Part shown: in pieces, positions 22,146 to 31,876 of the stretch
Position numbering within the stretch: the stretch's first letter is position 1
Layout: every line of letters starts with the position of its first letter
NCBI RefSeq assembly: GCF_001887355.1
Contig: NZ_MPIN01000004.1
Location: forward strand, 721,733 to 785,732
Source: Cystobacter ferrugineus
GTDB taxonomy: Bacteria; Myxococcota; Myxococcia; Myxococcales; Myxococcaceae
Direction: 5' to 3'
DNA: 64,000 nt
Made by a program: the position numbers and the translations under genes
The notes under the pieces: generated by a model
What the model was told of the DNA's origin: nothing
Database searches by the model: none
Seen by the model: only the letters and a program-made list of their open reading frames with translations

Positions 22146-22186
22146 AAATGCGCCCCCCTCACCGTTCTAGACTCCACTCCCCCCGT

Positions 22187-25100
22187 ATGTCCGACCCCCG
22201 CCGCCTCCTCCAGGTCTTCCCCGATGCCGCACGCCGTCAAGCCGCCCTGCGCGCGGTCCGGCGGGACGCGGGAGTCGTGCGCGGAGACCTCCTCCTCGAC
22301 TGGGCGGGGTTCCTCGACGCGCTCGGAGGCGTGCGCGAGCTGGGCCGGCGCCCGTGCCCGCCCCTCGCGGCGCGCACCGTGGTGGCCTCGCTCGCGCAGG
22401 GCCTGGGTCCCACGCCCCTGGGCGACTTCGTCCATGAGCCCGCTTTCGCCCGCGCCGCGCTCGAGGTGCTGCTGGACCTCAAGGCCGGGCGTCTGTCCCC
22501 TCGTGAGCTACAGGACGCACTGGAGGTTCTTCCTCCCGAGCGGCGCGACCGCGTCCGGACGATCGCCCTGTTGCACCATGCCTACGAGCGCAAGATGGCC
22601 GAGCTGGGCCTCGCCGATCGCGAGGACGGCGTGCGGGGGGCCCGCGAGGCGCTGGAGCGCGGCGCCTGGCCCGAGGCCTGGGCCGACGTGGGGGAGATCG
22701 TGCTGCGCGGTATCTACGATGTCCGGCCCTCGACGCTGGAGCTGTTGCTGGCCCTGGCCGCCGCGTGTGAGTCGCGCCGGGTGGGCCTGCGCGTGGAGAC
22801 GCCGGTGGGTGGCTCTCCCGTGGCGGACGCGGCCCTGGCGGCTCTCTTCCGCGCCTTCGAGAACCGCGGCGAGGTGCTCACCCACGTGGATCTCTTCAAG
22901 GCGGACGTCACCTTCGAGTCCCGTCCGATGGGCGAGCTGGGCCGTCATCTCTTCTCGCCTCGGGCTCCCAAGGACGCGCTCGTGGGCGCGGTGGAGGGCC
23001 TGCGCCTGTGGAGCGCGGCGACGGCGCGGGACGAGGCCCGGCTCATCGCCCGGGACGTGCGCCGCCTCGTGTCGGAGGGCGTGCCTCCGGGAGACATCGC
23101 CGTGGCCTGGCGCGATCTGAGCCACGAGGCGCATTGGGTGGCCGAGGCCCTGGGCGAGCTGGACGTTCCCGTGCGTCTGCCCTGGGGCGAGCCGCTCGCG
23201 CTGACCGGACCCGTGCGGCTGGCGTTGGATCTGCCCCTGCTGGTGGAGGATGGCTTCCCCGCCGAGCGCGTGGCGGACGTGCTCTCCAGCCGCTACGCGC
23301 CCCGGCTCTCCGCGGGTGCGCCCGAGGCCCCCGCGACGCTGCTGTCGCTCGCGGCCGTGCGCGATGATCGGCTGGGCGCCTCGCGTAACAAGGGCGCGTA
23401 TGACATCCGCCTGGAGGCCCTGGCGAGGCGGTTGACGCCGCTTCCGGATCAGGTGCGTCTCAAGGATCAGCGCCGCGTCCAAGAGGTCCGGGTGCTGCGT
23501 GAGCGGTGTCTGCTGTTGATCGAGGCCTGCCGTCTCATCCCGGAGCAGGGCCGCGCCTCGGAGCTGCTCACGGCGTGGTGGCAGGTGGTGCGGCGCCTGG
23601 GGTTGTTGGACTCGGAGGGCACGCCGGAGACGCCCGCGGACGAGGGACTGGGTGCGCTCGCGGTGGAGGCCCGGGCGCGGGACGACGCGGCGCGGAGGGC
23701 GCTCGTGGCGCGCGTGCGCGAGCTGGAGCGGGTGCTCGCGGCGGTGGGCGGAGGCCCCCGGTTGCGCCGGCGCACCTTCGGTCGCTGGCTCGCGGACGCG
23801 ATGCGCGACGTGCACCTGCCGCCCCGGGGCTCGGCGGTGGGCGCCGTGGAGGTGCTGGAGGTGCGCGAGCTGGAGGGCCGCACCTTCGCGCATGTCTTCC
23901 TCGGAGGGCTCGCCGAGGGCCGCTTTCCGGGCCACGAGGTGCCCAACCCGTTGCTCGGCGACTCCGAGCGCCATGCGCTCAACAAGCACCTGGGCCGCGA
24001 CGTCTTCCGCCTCACCGGTGGCGAGTTCGAGGACCGCGCGCCCTGGCGGCTCACCGAGGACCGGCTCCTGTTCGCCAGCGTCCTGGTGGCCGCCGAGCAC
24101 ACGGTGAGTCTGTCCTTCTCGGTGGCGGGTCCGGGCGGGCAGGAGCAGGCGCCGTCCTCGTTCCTGGAGGAGGTGCGGCGCTTGACGGGAGTCACGTGGC
24201 CGCTGCGCTCGCTGCCGGCCATCGCGCCGCTCGACGAGGTGCTCACGCCGGCGGAGCTGCGCCAGCGCGTGGTGCTGGAGTCGCTCGCGATGGAGCGGCT
24301 GCGTGTCTCGGAGCCGGATCCCGCCCGCGCGGTGCTGCGCGAGCGCTTCTCGCACATGCCCTGGTTCCAGGCGGCCCGGGAGATGATGCGGGTGGAGCTC
24401 GAGCGCCTGCATTTCTTCGGGGGAGGGGTTCTGGACGCGGGCCGCTACACCGGCGCAGTGGGGGCTCCGGATCTGGGCGAGTCGCTTCGCGAGGCGTTCC
24501 GCTTCAATGCCGAGCGGCCCCTGTCCGCCTCGTCGATCGCGCGCTTCAGCAACTGTGGCTTCCAGGGCTTCCTGGCGTATGGGCTCAAGGTGCCCGAGCC
24601 GGAGCGGCCCGGGGAGGAGTTCGACAGCCGGGGGCAGGGCGTCTTCTGGCACCGGGTGCTGGAGGAGTTCTTCAAGCGGCTCAAGGAGCGCGAGCTGCTC
24701 GGGCGGGGGTTCAACGAGCTGCCGGAGGCGCTGTTGGACGCGGTGCTCGACGAGGTGCAGGAGCACTTCGAGAAACACCACTACGTGGGCCATCCCGCGC
24801 TGTGGCGCCTGGCGCGCGAGCGGGCGAAGAACATGGTGCGCCGCGTGCTCCTGGACGAGCGGCGCGGGCTGCCCTTCGAGCGGCTGGAACCCTCGGGCTT
24901 CGAGCTGCGCTTCGGACCGAAGAATCCGGCGGAGGGGTGGAACGCGGTCACCCTCCAGGTCGGCGAGGACGTCATCCACTTCGAGGGAACCATCGATCGC
25001 CTGGACATGGGTGGGGGCGAGGTGGGCGTCATCGACTACAAGTCCGGTCACCTGTCGCGCTCGGAGCTGCGCAACAAGCTGCTGGAGGCCTCGGACTTCC

Positions 25101-25453
25101 AGCTCCCGTTGTACCTGTACGCGGCGCGGGCCAGTGGCCATCGCGACACGAGGCACGCCGCCTGGTTCTCGTTGAAGACGGGCAAGGCCATCCTCCTGTC
25201 GGAGGTGCTCGCGGACAAGAAGCAGGAGCTGTCGTTGGATCTGGACGAGCTGCTGTCCACCGAGCCCGACGTGCGCCAGCGGCTGGCGGCGGAGCAGAAG
25301 CCCAACCTGGCCAACGCGGTGGAGACGCTGGTGCGCACCGTGAGGGCGGGACAGTTCGCCATGCGGCCCAAGGACTGCGGGCGCTGTGGCTATCAGGCCG
25401 TCTGCCGCATCACCGAGCGGCGGATCGTGGGCGAGGAGGGCGCCCATGAGTGA
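22187..25453 (+). CDS. addB: AddB-like subunit: inactive helicase with Fe-S PD-(D/E)XK nuclease
   Basis: The 1088-residue protein pairs with AddA encoded immediately downstream (8-base overlap). Its N-terminal half has no Walker A, as in AddB, where the helicase fold is noncatalytic and reads recombination hotspots. The C-terminal nuclease is complete: WHRVLEEFF supplies the early histidine, FEGTIDRLDMG the aspartate, and VGVIDYKSG the D-Y-K. A 4Fe-4S site is formed by FSNCGF upstream and C-x2-C-x5-C in DCGRCGYQAVC at the end. The complex resects double-strand breaks and loads RecA. The start ATG 22187 gives MSDPRRLL; no good ribosome site is visible. Confident as family, moderately confident on the AddB name versus AdnA/B variants. 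Confidence 0.88.
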   Translation: MSDPRRLLQVFPDAARRQAALRAVRRDAGVVRGDLLLDWAGFLDALGGVRELGRRPCPPLAARTVVASLAQGLGPTPLGDFVHEPAFARAALEVLLDLKAGRLSPRELQDALEVLPPERRDRVRTIALLHHAYERKMAELGLADREDGVRGAREALERGAWPEAWADVGEIVLRGIYDVRPSTLELLLALAAACESRRVGLRVETPVGGSPVADAALAALFRAFENRGEVLTHVDLFKADVTFESRPMGELGRHLFSPRAPKDALVGAVEGLRLWSAATARDEARLIARDVRRLVSEGVPPGDIAVAWRDLSHEAHWVAEALGELDVPVRLPWGEPLALTGPVRLALDLPLLVEDGFPAERVADVLSSRYAPRLSAGAPEAPATLLSLAAVRDDRLGASRNKGAYDIRLEALARRLTPLPDQVRLKDQRRVQEVRVLRERCLLLIEACRLIPEQGRASELLTAWWQVVRRLGLLDSEGTPETPADEGLGALAVEARARDDAARRALVARVRELERVLAAVGGGPRLRRRTFGRWLADAMRDVHLPPRGSAVGAVEVLEVRELEGRTFAHVFLGGLAEGRFPGHEVPNPLLGDSERHALNKHLGRDVFRLTGGEFEDRAPWRLTEDRLLFASVLVAAEHTVSLSFSVAGPGGQEQAPSSFLEEVRRLTGVTWPLRSLPAIAPLDEVLTPAELRQRVVLESLAMERLRVSEPDPARAVLRERFSHMPWFQAAREMMRVELERLHFFGGGVLDAGRYTGAVGAPDLGESLREAFRFNAERPLSASSIARFSNCGFQGFLAYGLKVPEPERPGEEFDSRGQGVFWHRVLEEFFKRLKERELLGRGFNELPEALLDAVLDEVQEHFEKHHYVGHPALWRLARERAKNMVRRVLLDERRGLPFERLEPSGFELRFGPKNPAEGWNAVTLQVGEDVIHFEGTIDRLDMGGGEVGVIDYKSGHLSRSELRNKLLEASDFQLPLYLYAARASGHRDTRHAAWFSLKTGKAILLSEVLADKKQELSLDLDELLSTEPDVRQRLAAEQKPNLANAVETLVRTVRAGQFAMRPKDCGRCGYQAVCRITERRIVGEEGAHE

Positions 25454-28400
25454 CGCGCTCACGTTGGCGTTGGAGAGGAACCTCGCGCTGCTCGCGGGAG
25501 CGGGCGCGGGCAAGACGTACAGCCTGGTGACGATGACGTTGCACCTGCTGGCCGGGGCTCGCGAGGGGTTCAAGCCCTTGCGGCCCGCGCGCCTGGGCAT
25601 GGTGACGTTCACCGACAAGGCCGCCGCGGAGATGCGCGCCCGTGTCCGCGCGCGCCTGGATGTGCTCGTCCAGGAGGAGCCCAAGGCCTCGCAGGAGCCC
25701 GAGCTGCGTGCCTCGCTCGAGCGCCTGGGATTGCCCTTTCCCTCGCGCGATACGTGGCGCTCGCTGCGAGAAGAGCTGGGCTCGGCCTCGATTGGCACCT
25801 TCCACTCGATGTGCGGGCAGATCCTCCGCCGCGCGCCCCCGGGCTCGGGCGTGGATTCCTCCTTCGACGTGCTCGACGAGCTGGAGGCGCGCTCGCTCGT
25901 GCTGGACGTGTGCGAGCGCGTGGTGCTGGACGCACTGGAGTCCAGCGACACGCTCGTGCGCGAGCTGTGCGCGGAGATGACCTTCTCGGGCTCCGACTTC
26001 ACCGAGGGCCTGGTGTCCTCGTTGGCGGAGCTCTACGGGAAGTTGCGCGAGGAGGGCCTGCCCGCGGCCAGGGCTCGCGTGTCCGACCCCGGCGAGGCCC
26101 GGGAGTCCTTCGACGCCCTCGTCGAGAAGTGCCTCGAGCTGTGCGGCACCGTGAGCGAGCATGACGCCAAGGGAGAGTGGCGGGCGCTGCGCGAGAAGCT
26201 CGAGCGCGCGCTCACGGGGCTCACCCCGGAGAATGTCTTCGCGCCCGAGCGGCTGCCCGCGCTCAAGCTGGCCTTCAACGAGGATGGCCGTGACGTGCGC
26301 CGGCTCAAGAAGGAGCCCGGCAACTCGATGAAGGAGCTGTACTGGTCCTTCTTCGGCAAGAGCGACGGCACGGTGTTGACGCTGGAGGACGTCGCCGCGG
26401 CGTGCCGCACGGTGCCCTTCGAGGCCACGTTCCGCGCGCTGCTCGAGCAGGTGGAGACGCGTCACGCGGAGGAGCTCTCCCGGCGCAACGCCCTGGACTT
26501 CACCTCGCTGCTGGTGAAGACGCGGGACTTGCTGAGGGACCTGCCCGACTTCCGCCGGCAGATGCAGGAGCGCTTCGGCGCGCTGATGGTGGACGAGTTC
26601 CAGGACACCAACCGCTTGCAGTTGGAGCTGGTGCTGCTCCTGGCCGAGAAGCGCGAGGAGGGTCCCCGGGCCGTGAAACCCGAGGACGATCTGGTGGCCG
26701 CGCTGCCGCTGGAGCCCGCCTTCCTGTGCGTGGTGGGAGATCGCAAGCAATCCATCTACGAGTTCCGTGGCGCGGACGTGTCCGTGTTCGAGGTGCTGGC
26801 GCGGAAGATCGAGCAGGAGGGGGGCGTGCGCGACTTCCTCCAGCACAACCGGCGCTCGGTGCCGCCGCTGCTCGACTTCTTCAACCAGGCCTTCGCGGGC
26901 GTGCTGGTGCCGGGCGAGGGTGGGGCGCGTCCCTACGAGGTGGTGTACTCGCCCGAGGGGGATGATCTGCTCGCGGTGCGTCCGGCCCCCGTTCCCGCGC
27001 CGGTGGTGGAGCGGTTGCTCGTGGAGGACGAGGGCATCACCACCTCGGGCGAGCTGCGCCTGGCGGAGGCGGAAGCGCTGGCCAGGCGGTTGAAGCTCCT
27101 CCTGTCCCCGGGGGCTCCGCCGCTCATCGCGGTGACCAGGGAGGGAACGGAGGTGCGTCCCCTGCGCGGGGGCGATGTGGCCATGCTCTTCCGGACCTTC
27201 AATCACCTGGAGGTGTACCGGCAGGCGCTCATCCGCCACGGCATTCCCCACCGCGTGCTGCGCGGCCGTGGCTTCTATGGCGCGCAGGAGGTGCTGGATC
27301 TGGCCTCGTTGCTGTCGCTGCTCGCGGACTCCGAGGACACGCTGGCGTTCGCGGCGGTGTTGCGCTCTCCCCTGGTGGGGTTGTCGGACGCCTCGCTCTT
27401 CCGCCTGGCCGGGCCCGAGGGCTTGTCGCTGCCCGCCGTGGAGAAGGAGGGGGCCTCGCTCCTCGAGTCTCTTCCGGAGGGGGAGCGCGAGCGGCTCGAG
27501 CGCTTCCTCTCGGCGCTGCCCGTGCTGCGGCGCGAGCGGGACCGGCTCGGCGTGCGGGCCCTGCTCCTGGCCACGCTGGAGCTGACGGGCTTTCGCGAGG
27601 CGCTGGCGGCCACACCCTACGCGGAGCAGGCGAGCGCCAACGTGGAGAAGCTGCTCGCGCTGGCGGGCCGGCGCGACGAGCGGGGCACGGGCGGCTGCGT
27701 GACGTTCGCGCGCGAGCTGCAACGCCTCGTGCACGAGGAGCCCACCGAGGCCCAGGCGGATCTGCTGGAGGCGGGGGACCCGCGCGCGGTGCAACTGCTC
27801 ACCATCCACCGGGCCAAGGGGTTGGAGTGGCCGGTGGTGGTGGTGCCCGCCCTCGGCGGTTCGCGGCGCTCCAACAGTGGAGGCCGGGTGCTCTTCGAGC
27901 GCGCACGAGGCCTCGCCCTGCGGCCCTGGTTGCCGCCGGAGCTGCTCGACCGCGTGGACACGAAGTTCCGCTCGCCCCGCTTCGACGCGGTGAAGACGGA
28001 GATCAAGCGCCGGGAGACGGCCGAGTACCGGCGTCTGCTGTACGTCGCGCTCACTCGCGCCCAGGATCGGCTCCTGCTGTCGGGCGGCGAGGAGCGCAAC
28101 GCCGCGGACTCGTGGTGGTGTCTGCTCGACGCGCGGCTCGATGAAGACTCCCGGCTGCGGGACCTGGTCGAGGATCTGGACGCGCGCACGCTGCCGGAGC
28201 CTCCGGAGGTGGACCTCTCCGAGGAAGTGGACGAGGCCGAGCAGGAGGCCCGGGTCGAGACGGCCTGGCAGCGGGTGCACGCTCGCCGGGACGCCGTCGT
28301 CCCCGAGTCCGTGACGGTGCAGGCGGCGGCGGTGCAGGACTTCATCGCCTGTCCGCGCCGCTACCATTACGTGCACCGGTTGGGTCTGCGCGCCGATGGA

Positions 28401-29156
28401 GTCGCCTGGGAAGCACCGCCTCGCCAGTCGGCCCTCTATGTCGAGCGGGACTCCTGGGGCGCTCCGTCCCCGAGCATTCCGGACCGGGTGGTGGCCCTCG
28501 TACGAAGGGTGGATTTCCGGCTGGCGGGTACGCCCGCTCCGGAGCGGCGGGCGCGCCTGGAAGCCTTGGCTCGGGAGGTGGGCTGGACAGTGGAGGAGGA
28601 GGGCGTGGAGGAGGCGCTTGTCCTCCTCGAACGCTTCTTGGACACCGCATGTGCCCACGAACTGGCGACCGTGCCCGGGGCGCGAGTGCTCCGTGCGTTG
28701 CCGTTCGTCCTGGACCTGCCGGGAGGAGCGCCCACGGCCCTGGAGGGGGAGCTGGATCTGCTCTGGGAGACCCCGGAGCGCGAGGCCCGGGGCCTGGTGT
28801 TCCTACCGGCCGGTAGGTCTCCCCGCGGGCTCGAGGCCCATGCGGACTTCCTGGCGGCCGTGGCCTTGGCGGCTCGGCGGCTGGTGCGCGAGGACGTGCC
28901 CCTCCGGGTCGGGGCCGTCTTCCTGGGTGGGGACGTGTTGGAGCCGGAATTCTCCTCGGAAGAAGCAAACCTACAGCTCCCCGCCGAGCGCTTGAGGGAC
29001 GCGGCCCGGGCCCTGGTCGAAGCGGACGTCCGAGGGCGCTGGCCCGGGCGCGACGCCCCGGTGTGTGCGGGACTGGCCTGTGGCTATGTCGCACACTGCC
29101 ACCCGGACGGCCTGGCACGATCCAACTCGGTGACGGACCGTGCGGAAGCGTGCTAA
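25446..29156 (+). CDS. addA: AddA-like UvrD-family helicase with degenerate nuclease domain
   Basis: The 1236-residue product has every SF1A helicase motif: LLAGAGAGKTYSL (Walker A, residue ~15), TFTDKAAAEM (Ia), MVDEFQDTNRLQ (II), VVGDRKQSIYEFRGAD (III), LLTIHRAKGLEWPVVVV (V) and LYVALTRAQDRLL (VI). The ATG overlaps the addB stop, so the two are one operon with coupled translation. The C-terminal region has the position of the AddA nuclease but the D..DYK pattern is absent: the matching segment reads ALEGELDLLWETP then GLVFLPAGR. Four cysteines remain in Fe-S-like spacing (FIACPRRY; VCAGLACGYVAHC). It should therefore be an active helicase with a probably inactive nuclease fold, leaving cutting to AddB. 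purA follows 12 bases later. Confidence 0.9.
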   Translation: MSDALTLALERNLALLAGAGAGKTYSLVTMTLHLLAGAREGFKPLRPARLGMVTFTDKAAAEMRARVRARLDVLVQEEPKASQEPELRASLERLGLPFPSRDTWRSLREELGSASIGTFHSMCGQILRRAPPGSGVDSSFDVLDELEARSLVLDVCERVVLDALESSDTLVRELCAEMTFSGSDFTEGLVSSLAELYGKLREEGLPAARARVSDPGEARESFDALVEKCLELCGTVSEHDAKGEWRALREKLERALTGLTPENVFAPERLPALKLAFNEDGRDVRRLKKEPGNSMKELYWSFFGKSDGTVLTLEDVAAACRTVPFEATFRALLEQVETRHAEELSRRNALDFTSLLVKTRDLLRDLPDFRRQMQERFGALMVDEFQDTNRLQLELVLLLAEKREEGPRAVKPEDDLVAALPLEPAFLCVVGDRKQSIYEFRGADVSVFEVLARKIEQEGGVRDFLQHNRRSVPPLLDFFNQAFAGVLVPGEGGARPYEVVYSPEGDDLLAVRPAPVPAPVVERLLVEDEGITTSGELRLAEAEALARRLKLLLSPGAPPLIAVTREGTEVRPLRGGDVAMLFRTFNHLEVYRQALIRHGIPHRVLRGRGFYGAQEVLDLASLLSLLADSEDTLAFAAVLRSPLVGLSDASLFRLAGPEGLSLPAVEKEGASLLESLPEGERERLERFLSALPVLRRERDRLGVRALLLATLELTGFREALAATPYAEQASANVEKLLALAGRRDERGTGGCVTFARELQRLVHEEPTEAQADLLEAGDPRAVQLLTIHRAKGLEWPVVVVPALGGSRRSNSGGRVLFERARGLALRPWLPPELLDRVDTKFRSPRFDAVKTEIKRRETAEYRRLLYVALTRAQDRLLLSGGEERNAADSWWCLLDARLDEDSRLRDLVEDLDARTLPEPPEVDLSEEVDEAEQEARVETAWQRVHARRDAVVPESVTVQAAAVQDFIACPRRYHYVHRLGLRADGVAWEAPPRQSALYVERDSWGAPSPSIPDRVVALVRRVDFRLAGTPAPERRARLEALAREVGWTVEEEGVEEALVLLERFLDTACAHELATVPGARVLRALPFVLDLPGGAPTALEGELDLLWETPEREARGLVFLPAGRSPRGLEAHADFLAAVALAARRLVREDVPLRVGAVFLGGDVLEPEFSSEEANLQLPAERLRDAARALVEADVRGRWPGRDAPVCAGLACGYVAHCHPDGLARSNSVTDRAEAC

Positions 29157-30495
<1,339 letters not shown>

Positions 30496-31033: not shown

Positions 31034-31876
31034 TCAGCCCGTCAGGACGTAGGTGGCCAGCAGGCCCACCAGGGCCAGCCCCGCGCCCAGGACGAGCAGT
31101 CCCACGTCCCCTCGTCCCCGTGAGCGCACGGGCGCGCGCTCCCGCTCCACGCTCGGGCTCTCGGGTTCGGGGGCGGGGGAGGGCGCGGCTTGCTCCTCGG
31201 GCGGCGGTTCCGCGATGGGCTCGGCCGCCGGGGCCTGGAAGCGCAGCAGGGTCCGTCCCAGCTCGATGATGTCGCCGTCCTGGAGCGCCTGGGGGGCTTC
31301 CACGCGTTTCCCATTGAGATAGACGCCGTTGGGGCTGTCCTGGTCCTCCAGGAGGAAGGCGCCCTCCTGCTGGCGGATGCACGCATGGCGGCGGGACACG
31401 GCGATGTCCCTCAAGCGCACGGCCATCTCCAGGCTCCGCCCCAGCTCCGTCCGGGCCTCCGCGAGGGCGAAGCAGCGGCCCACGTCCGCGCCGGTGAGGC
31501 ACTGGAGCGACGCGGCGCGCGAGACCAGGGATTCTTCCGTGTCCCCCAGCAGGTGCTTGAGCACGGCCACCGTGCCCACCTGCCGCTCGGTGTCCGCGCC
31601 GGGTGCCAGCAGCTTCAGGCTCATGCCCTCGGGCAGGCCCACCTCCTCACCGGGAAGCACCAGCCGCGCCACGTCCGGGGGCACCATCACCCCCGCCACG
31701 GTGAAGGTGCGGCGGGCCTCCACCATCAGCCGGTGCCCCTCGATGCGCAGCGTCAGCAGGCCGGGCGGCAGTCCCTCGAGGCGGACATGATCGTCCTCGC
31801 CGCCTCCCAGCAGATGCACCCCCTCGGGAAGCTCGAAGGAGGTCGGGGTGCCCAGGTGCTCGAATTCGAAGTGCAT
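31034..31876 (-). CDS. FHA-domain protein with C-terminal membrane anchor
   Basis: The 280-residue protein has an N-terminal beta-rich region (1-~125) that may be a degenerate FHA-like fold, and a clear FHA domain at ~135-215: LGRSLEMAVRLRDIAVSRRH, then EDQDSPNGVYLNGKRV, then LQDGDIIELG. A proline/glutamate-rich linker (~217-250) leads to one C-terminal hydrophobic segment, VGLLVLGAGLALVGLLATYV. FHA domains bind phosphothreonine peptides, so this is likely a membrane-tethered reader of Ser/Thr kinase signalling, which is abundant in myxobacteria. No kinase gene is adjacent. Confidence 0.85.
   Translation of the reverse strand: MHFEFEHLGTPTSFELPEGVHLLGGGEDDHVRLEGLPPGLLTLRIEGHRLMVEARRTFTVAGVMVPPDVARLVLPGEEVGLPEGMSLKLLAPGADTERQVGTVAVLKHLLGDTEESLVSRAASLQCLTGADVGRCFALAEARTELGRSLEMAVRLRDIAVSRRHACIRQQEGAFLLEDQDSPNGVYLNGKRVEAPQALQDGDIIELGRTLLRFQAPAAEPIAEPPPEEQAAPSPAPEPESPSVERERAPVRSRGRGDVGLLVLGAGLALVGLLATYVLTG

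What the first reader, a model, noticed from the sequence alone, without database searches (positions are those of the whole stretch)
28320..29156. AddA nuclease domain has lost D..DYK but kept Fe-S-like cysteines
All helicase motifs are intact, yet the C-terminal nuclease shows ELDLLWETP then GLVFLPAGR where D and DYK should be. Four cysteines remain in the spacing of a 4Fe-4S nuclease staple, here C...C-x4-C-x5-C. AddB keeps a complete nuclease with its own cluster. The complex would have a single nuclease and possibly two clusters, unlike classical AddAB.
Basis: partly seen in the sequence, partly recalled or inferred. Interest (0 to 1): 0.55.

Follow-up and report, generated by a model that had tools for sequence, protein, structure and literature searches.

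The report
Nuclease-dead AddA with conserved cysteine staple
In myxobacteria related to Myxococcus, one of the two DNA-cutting domains of the enzyme that processes broken chromosomes has lost its cutting site but kept the four cysteines expected to hold an iron-sulfur cluster, so the enzyme probably trims only one DNA strand.

Summary
The window's AddA (25446-29156, +) overlaps an intact AddB by 8 bases. Its C-terminal domain is predicted to fold as a RecB-type nuclease (pLDDT 83.9, pTM 0.80) but has V-F-L where D-Y-K should be and lacks the conserved His, Glu, Gln and Tyr. The four cysteines (C969, C1207, C1212, C1218) are invariant in the 56 nuclease-dead rows of this clade compared and in the 46 nuclease-intact relatives compared. 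On a tree of helicase columns catalysis was lost twice (one-clade AU test p 0.013), each time with all four cysteines kept. In the dead lineages AddB's nuclease is intact wherever it could be read. The staple in AddA is older than the loss: other families have staple and DYK together. Most likely this is a one-nuclease AddAB that cuts only the 5'-ended strand, the mirror image of RecBCD, with the dead domain kept as a folded, metal-stabilised exit wall for the 3' strand. Iron content, cutting and Chi response are untested. In Myxococcus-type members, not in the window protein, a relocated K-x14-E site is not excluded. New variant of a known kind.

The parts
22148..25453 (+). addB, 1101 aa: helicase-like N-terminus and C-terminal PD-(D/E)XK nuclease with its own four-cysteine staple
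   Evidence: (PDDEXK_1 5.1e-35)
24554..25405 (+). AddB nuclease domain from C803 to C1086: D950, D963-Y964-K965 (25034-25042), Q985, Y989, C1077/C1080/C1086
   Evidence: numbering; motif residues intact in the crown rows that could be read
25446..29156 (+). addA, 1236 aa, start overlapping the addB stop (ATGAGTGA)
25446..28140 (+). AddA SF1A (UvrD-type) helicase region, motifs intact (end approximate)
28302..29153 (+). AddA C-terminal RecB-type nuclease fold (aa 953-1236), catalytic site degenerate
   Evidence: AlphaFold model, PDB matches; PDDEXK_1 only 16.9 bits against a cut-off of 22 for residues 940-1236
28350..28352 (+). Cys969, first staple cysteine (CPRRY)
   Evidence: 56/56 dead crown rows, 46/46 intact rows
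28755..28757 (+). Asp1104, motif II Asp, retained
28797..28805 (+). V1118-F1119-L1120 in place of motif III D-Y-K
28848..28862 (+). F1135 and V1139 in place of the Q and Y of QxxxY
29064..29099 (+). C1207-x4-C1212-x5-C1218, C-terminal staple cysteines

Best explanation
This is the AddAB double-strand-break resection enzyme of a Myxococcaceae-type bacterium in which the AddA nuclease has been switched off by evolution, while its iron-staple fold is kept. AddA still drives unwinding as a 3'-5' motor. AddB still cuts the 5'-ended strand. The 3'-ended strand leaves past a domain that has the shape and cysteine staple of a RecB-type nuclease but no active site. The enzyme therefore should resect every break directly to a 3' single-stranded tail, with no destructive phase on the 3' strand and little or no need for Chi to protect it: the mirror image of RecBCD, whose single nuclease is in the AddA-like subunit. 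Shown: the sequence changes, the two losses, cysteine invariance, AddB motif intactness, the predicted fold. Inferred: loss of cutting, the cluster, one-strand resection, weaker Chi dependence, a structural or strand-guiding role of the dead domain.
For: Catalytic positions invariant in 46 of 46 intact rows are lost in the 56 crown rows (D1118 0/56, Q1135 0/56, Y1139 0/56, H1016 1/56, E1084 2/56), while the four Cys stay at 56/56. In 28 of 56 rows the D became A, the same change as in deposited mutants: the PDB sequence of AddA reads LLAYKS (that the wild type has D1172 there is recalled), and 6ppr, titled AdnA(D934A)-AdnB(D1014A), reads VLAWKTG in AdnB where another entry reads VLDWKTG. Two losses on the helicase tree, one-clade tree rejected, AU p 0.013; the three second-group genomes (G045, G082, G081) also keep the four Cys. 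AddB in crown rows where readable: DYK D and K 55/55, Q and Y 55/55, last three Cys 56/56. Probably not a pseudogene: the 12 closest crown pairs have nuclease-domain dN/dS 0.11-0.36, helicase 0.07-0.18. Residues invariant in the crown but not in intact rows: W988 and W1004 (0/46 intact), R1124 (4/46), E1166 (7/46), E989 (13/46). The domain model matches AdnA, Cas4-family ACE1 and AddB over residues 1 to about 270, but B. subtilis AddA only over 1-218. In the own genome the best recB-model match is this AddA itself; the other recB matches lie in open frames of 641-794 aa, and no recD match reaches the cut-off. Strand roles in B. subtilis: AddA nuclease for the 3' strand, AddB for the 5' strand (passages of PMC4824097; PMC4027173).
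Against: No biochemistry on any myxobacterial AddAB was seen in the listings of the held library. Four cysteines may bind zinc rather than a cluster; a zinc-bound homologue, 3L0A, is described in PMC3466216 and is among the structural matches. Motif II Asp is kept in 56/56 and K or R at the motif III Lys in 52/56, more than simple decay predicts. The AddB Chi-pocket positions looked at do not change with the loss, so reduced Chi dependence has no sequence support. The nuclease domain evolves faster relative to the helicase in the dead clade (median ratio 1.56-2.08, against 0.94-1.69 in intact rows), and in all 12 closest pairs its dN/dS exceeds the helicase's, so constraint has partly relaxed. 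Crown rows are closely related (whole-AddA median identity 69%), so invariance within the crown alone is weak evidence.
Confidence: 0.72

Rival explanations
1. Moved active site. In part of the clade the lost motif III acid was replaced by a Glu in the following helix (Q1135 to E), giving D1104 ... K1120-x14-E1135, a carboxylate migration as in NgoMIV, so the AddA domain may still cut in Myxococcus-type species.
For: Q1135 is E in 42 of 56 crown rows; K1120 and E1135 occur together in 25 of 56 (23 rows of genus group g19, the named Myxococcus row, and the basal row L050); spacing is 14 in 56/56. Migration of the carboxylate, e.g. in NgoMIV, and to the helix after the motif strand in PAB2104, is described in PMC1189080 (passages). 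D1104 kept in 56/56.
Against: The window protein has L1120 and F1135 and cannot form it. Sister genera have R with E, or K with S/A. H1016, E1084 and Y1139 are lost almost throughout the crown (1/56, 2/56, 0/56).
Confidence: 0.1
2. Neutral leftover (shares the dead nuclease with the best explanation, denies a functional consequence): the AddA nuclease became dispensable, and the cysteines persist only because the metal site holds the C-terminus folded; no new function and no change of resection mode that matters in the cell.
For: Relative rate of the domain is higher in the dead clade. In AddB the cluster is described as critical for structural integrity of the domain, and Cys mutants of Bad were labile (PMC7430649 passages).
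Against: Residues invariant in the crown that are not conserved in intact relatives (but crown rows are closely related) and dN/dS below 0.4 in the 12 closest pairs point to ongoing constraint; the same outcome arose twice.
Confidence: 0.3
3. The four cysteines hold zinc, not an iron-sulfur cluster (compatible with the rest of the best explanation).
For: DUF3799 protein 3L0A has the same four-Cys arrangement with zinc (PMC3466216 passages) and matches the model at Z 11.2.
Against: AddB, Cas4 and Bad with this arrangement hold Fe-S (passages), and AddB, Cas4-family and Dna2 chains are among the best structural matches that reach the staple. Spacing here is x4-x5, against x2-x5 in the AddB of this window.
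Confidence: 0.12

Closest known systems
AddAB of Bacillus subtilis (AddA 3u44/4cej chain A)
   Same: Gene pair, single SF1A motor in AddA, staple nuclease in AddB; AddA domain model matches at Z 13.6
   Different: B. subtilis AddA has an active nuclease (PMC4824097 passages), and the model match to it ends at residue 218, before the staple tail; the window's AddA has the staple and no active site
RecBCD
   Same: One active nuclease plus one dead nuclease-like domain (in RecC; recalled)
   Different: The active one is in RecB (AddA-like); here it is in AddB. No recB or recD match over the cut-off in this genome
AdnAB of mycobacteria
   Same: Best structural match is the AdnA nuclease domain, Z 14.2 (ties within 1 with ACE1 and AddA)
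   Different: AdnAB has two active nucleases (recalled); entry titles show both inactivated by D934A and D1014A
Iron-staple nucleases: AddB, Dna2, Cas4/ACE1, Bad
   Same: Four Cys spanning a RecB-type fold; AddB, Dna2 and ACE1 align through the C-terminal staple
   Different: AddB, Cas4 and Bad are described as active; this one lacks motif III and other catalytic residues. C-x4-C-x5-C instead of the C-x2-C-x5-C of the window's AddB
Staple-AddA with intact motifs in other families of the phylum (L185-L211, L216)
   Same: Same four Cys with x4-x5 spacing, same gene family
   Different: DYK or DFK, Q and Y all present in 28 of 28 rows

Membership tests
AddAB (AddA subunit) | UvrD-type SF1A helicase core | tested here: met
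   UvrD-helicase 2.7e-49, UvrD_C; motif residues invariant; best PDB sequence match AddA 3u44_A 1.1e-85 with the family profile
AddAB (AddA subunit) | Encoded next to AddB | tested here: met
   8-base overlap with addB; AddB tail in the same short locus in the crown loci read
AddAB (AddA subunit) | Active C-terminal PD-(D/E)XK nuclease motifs | tested here: not met
   DYK to VFL, H, E, Q and Y lost; isolated domain 16.9 bits against PDDEXK_1 cut-off 22, and no PDDEXK_1 line for the whole protein
AddAB (AddA subunit) | Curated NCBIfam AddA cut-offs | tested here: not met
   addA_Gpos 212.8 of 707.65, addA_alphas 202.8 of 860.75; these models are for other lineages
Iron-staple nuclease domain | RecB-type fold with four Cys spanning the domain | tested here: met
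   (fold predicted, not solved)
Iron-staple nuclease domain | Four RecB nuclease motifs | tested here: not met
   only the motif II Asp remains in the window protein
Iron-staple nuclease domain | Bound Fe-S cluster | not testable with these tools
   needs purified protein
RecBCD | RecB, RecC and RecD subunits | tested here: not met
   no hit over the cut-off for recB or recD in the own genome; recC not searched
AdnAB | Two UvrD-type motor subunits, each with an active nuclease (recalled) | tested here: inconclusive
   fold match to the AdnA nuclease, but the partner is AddB-like (TIGR02773 2e-22, under its cut-off) and AddA is nuclease-dead

The most novel reading that the evidence does not exclude
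Myxococcaceae run a Chi-independent AddAB: a naturally 'post-Chi' machine that degrades only the 5' strand and always leaves an intact 3' tail, with the dead iron-staple domain of AddA re-used as a 3'-strand guide or RecA-loading platform. The same design evolved at least twice.
Probability: 0.3. Interest if true: 0.7.

Novelty: new variant of a known kind. Interest (0 to 1): 0.52.

Why it matters
It would be a natural version of the AddA-nuclease-dead enzyme that laboratories built to separate the roles of the two AddAB nucleases (recalled), kept across a whole clade of bacteria. That makes two questions testable: whether Chi control is needed at all when the 3' strand is never cut, and whether a nuclease-fold metal-staple domain has a job (folding, DNA-end binding, RecA loading) that does not depend on cutting. 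The separation of 'staple' from 'catalysis' has here been done by evolution, apparently twice.

Tried and rejected
Chi pocket. I asked whether AddB positions corresponding to B. subtilis F68 and F210 change with the AddA loss (residue roles from passages of PMC4824097; alignment to 3u44_B read by eye). They differ from B. subtilis in most dead and intact rows alike, and only 9 AddB sequences were compared: inconclusive.

A trial alignment with guessed coordinates (A3) cut one row short and was set aside.

Frequency elsewhere. Of the 77 other loci (L108-L184), 48 have at least 230 aa after a recognisable helicase motif VI; all 48 keep a (D/E)xK (44 by pattern, 4 by eye). Four of the 48 have a staple-like tail: three cyanobacterial (L109, L128, L129, x2-x5) and L111, itself a Myxococcales staple-AddA (x4-x5). 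A fourth cyanobacterial one, L110, has the tail but is outside the 48. The other 29 (4 short after motif VI, 25 without the motif VI pattern) were not counted; 17 of those 25 still show a GxxD...(D/E)xK-like string. So nuclease loss looks rare, but this is not a census.

Rows dropped. From the 109-row alignment: L218 (contig ends before the last Cys) and L066, L072 from the crown counts; L111, L216, L194 and L210 from the intact counts (L074 also from dN/dS). L210 has a gap at C1. Loci L212-L215 and L217 (no C-x4-C-x5-C tail; L217 has a C-x2-C-x5-C tail) were left out and their motif state was not settled. Of 93 family genomes with a hit, the motif was read in 79; 14 were not read. One of the unread, G027, shows its AddA in two pieces with a stop inside one match.

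dN/dS over all crown pairs in range is affected by synonymous saturation: medians 0.401 nuclease, 0.328 helicase, 286 of 1481 pairs with nuclease over 0.5; intact pairs 0.802 and 0.844. I rely on the 12 closest pairs. A first dN/dS script failed.

The tree is a quick search with SH-aLRT only, and the AU test used 35 rows, with the group defined by the motif (not among the tree's columns) but tested after the first tree had been seen.

Literature. Yeeles 2009 (PMC2658068), a DOI I took for Cromie 2009, and Sinha 2009 (PMC2701575) are not held. I recall but could not check whether Cromie discusses one-nuclease AddAB. That no paper describes nuclease-dead myxobacterial AddA rests on searches of an open-licence library only, some lists capped (46: 20 of 26; 54: 15 of 60). 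Searches 80 (no result) and 83 were on AdnAB and on migrated active sites. I saw listings, and passages of PMC4824097, PMC4027173, PMC6452273, PMC7430649, PMC3466216, PMC1193525, PMC5443536, PMC548270, PMC4081073 and PMC1189080; no whole paper.
Full report
WHAT IS THERE. The window lies in a 12.05 Mb genome of 42 contigs; relatives by AddA include named Myxococcus and Corallococcus records at 58-63% identity, so it is a Myxococcaceae-type myxobacterium (inference). addB (22148-25453) and addA (ATG at 25446, stop at 29156) overlap by the 8 bases ATGAGTGA. AddA has the UvrD-helicase and UvrD_C domains. Adenylosuccinate synthetase follows at 29169. In the own genome the best match of the recB model is this AddA; its other matches lie in open frames of 641-794 aa, and no recB or recD match reaches its cut-off. 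So this pair is probably the only RecBCD/AddAB-class enzyme there; recC and AdnAB were not searched for.

THE DOMAIN. Residues 953-1236 were modelled with an alignment of 17 sequences: mean pLDDT 83.9, pTM 0.80, with two low-confidence stretches, model residues 33-52 and 274-284. The first staple Cys (model residue 17) sits between the first two helices, the three others (255, 260, 266) in the C-terminal helical tail, motif II and III positions (152, 166) in central strands. Structure matches: AdnA Z 14.2, Cas4-family ACE1 14.0, B. subtilis AddA 13.6, AddB 12.4, Dna2 10.5 (differences under 1 are ties). AdnA, ACE1, AddB and Dna2 align to model residues 269-284, B. subtilis AddA only to 218, consistent with its lacking a staple tail. 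An intact relative (L111) modelled the same way gives nearly the same order of elements, pLDDT 81.6. No coordinates were available, so Cys-Cys distances were not measured. Sequence models barely see the domain: PDDEXK_1 16.9 bits, under its cut-off of 22, against 122 bits in AddB.

WHAT IS LOST AND WHAT IS KEPT. In a 109-row alignment of staple-AddA proteins (states), 50 rows keep D at motif III and 59 do not. All 50 with D also have motif II D, K, Q and Y. In the 56-row dead clade ('crown'), D1118 is A 28, L 13, V 7, S 4, T 4; K1120 is K 31, R 21, L 3, Q 1; Q1135 is E 42 and never Q; Y1139 is never Y; H1016 1/56; E1084 2/56; motif II D1104 56/56; each staple Cys 56/56. The freed sites have drifted widely, which shows there was time for the cysteines to drift too. 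All four cysteines fall among the 29 of 274 invariant columns (rough chance 1e-4); the non-staple Cys1069 does not. Crown rows are related (median identity 69%), so the stronger evidence is that the same four are invariant in intact rows with median identity 34% and in the second dead group.

HISTORY. Motif states were read in 79 of the 93 family genomes with a hit: 54 in the crown dead, 3 in a second dead group (G045, G081, G082), 22 intact. In other families of the phylum, 28 of 28 aligned staple-AddA rows are intact, as is the named MAG L111. On a tree made only from helicase columns (54 rows) the state changes twice, with starred branches between; forcing one clade is rejected, AU p 0.013 on 35 rows. 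The staple therefore predates the loss, and the loss happened twice with the staple kept each time.

PROBABLY NOT A PSEUDOGENE. The frame is open in the rows aligned. In the 12 closest crown pairs dN/dS is 0.11-0.36 for the nuclease domain and 0.07-0.18 for the helicase, the nuclease higher in each. The domain evolves faster relative to the helicase in the dead clade (median distance ratio 1.56-2.08, against 0.94-1.69 in intact rows): constraint has relaxed but not gone. Several residues are invariant only in the crown: W988 and W1004 (0 of 46 intact rows), R1124 (4), E1166 (7), E989 (13), P1126 (20), G1128 (18). Part of this may simply be shared ancestry.

THE PARTNER. In 56 crown rows AddB motif residues are intact wherever the fetched DNA reaches: motif II D 54/54, DYK D and K 55/55, Q and Y 55/55, first Cys 34/34, other Cys 56/56 each; the two second-group loci read also have DYK, Q and Y. 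Among 40 intact-AddA rows one (L056) shows S at the AddB motif II column in a fragmentary row, probably misalignment; the rest that could be read are intact.

MECHANISM. In B. subtilis the AddA nuclease cuts the 3'-ended strand and AddB the 5'-ended strand, and Chi is thought to keep the 3' strand from the AddA nuclease (passages of PMC4824097; PMC4027173). With AddA dead, only the 5' strand should be cut from the start, giving a 3' tail without waiting for Chi. The commonest natural change, D to A, is the change in deposited mutant sequences of AddA and AdnB. Why keep the staple? In AddB the cluster is described as critical for structural integrity of the domain, and Cys mutants of Bad were labile (PMC7430649 passages), so the simplest reading is that the domain must stay folded as the exit wall for the 3' strand. 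A more active role (RecA loading, end binding) is possible but untested. Whether the metal is Fe-S or Zn is open (PMC3466216 passages). The Chi-pocket comparison gave no support either way.

THE MAIN LOOPHOLE. In 25 of 56 crown rows, all 24 Myxococcus-type rows (g19 and the named Myxococcus) plus the basal L050, K1120 remains and Q1135 has become E, giving D...K-x14-E. Carboxylate migration is known in PD-(D/E)XK enzymes, e.g. NgoMIV (PMC1189080 passages). The window protein cannot form it (L1120, F1135), nor can genera with R, or with S/A at 1135. I consider it unlikely but not excluded for Myxococcus.

HOW UNUSUAL. Of 48 AddA/RecB-like proteins from other loci with a complete C-terminus, 48 keep (D/E)xK; 4 of 48 have a staple-like tail, three cyanobacterial with x2-x5 spacing and the Myxococcales L111 with x4-x5. 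I found no description of a nuclease-dead AddA of this kind in the listings of the open-licence library; key subscription papers were not held.

VERDICT. A real, clade-wide, twice-evolved one-nuclease AddAB (by sequence) with a conserved staple in the dead subunit: a new variant of a known kind, moderately surprising and directly testable.

Noticed in passing
L244-L248 (genomes G010, G046, G095, G008, G012): Several uncultured members of the same family carry a second AddA-like helicase-nuclease (about 31-36% identity over the helicase) with an intact VEFKTD motif and no C-x4-C-x5-C in the last 330 residues viewed; at E 1e-30 the crown genomes show no second locus of this kind.
   Followed up: partly
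L109, L110, L128, L129: Cyanobacterial AddA-like proteins carry an AddB-like C-x2-C-x5-C tail together with an intact D(F/Y)K motif, so staples in AddA-type subunits are not unique to myxobacteria.
   Followed up: partly
window 28755-28757 (D1104) and 28803-28805 (L1120): The motif II Asp is invariant in all 56 dead crown rows and K or R stays at the motif III Lys position in 52 of 56; unexplained for a dead nuclease.
   Followed up: partly
window 28815-28829: R1124-x-P1126-x-G1128 just after the broken motif III is invariant in 56 of 56 crown rows but variable in intact relatives.
   Followed up: no
L117, L119, L122: AddA-like ORFs of 885-919 aa (Meiothermus, Granulicella, Poribacteria records) may lack a C-terminal nuclease domain altogether; frameshifts not checked.
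   Followed up: no
window 31037-31876, - strand: FHA-domain protein, also matching the Yop-YscD cytoplasmic FHA-like domain model, near the addAB and adenylosuccinate synthetase genes.
   Followed up: no
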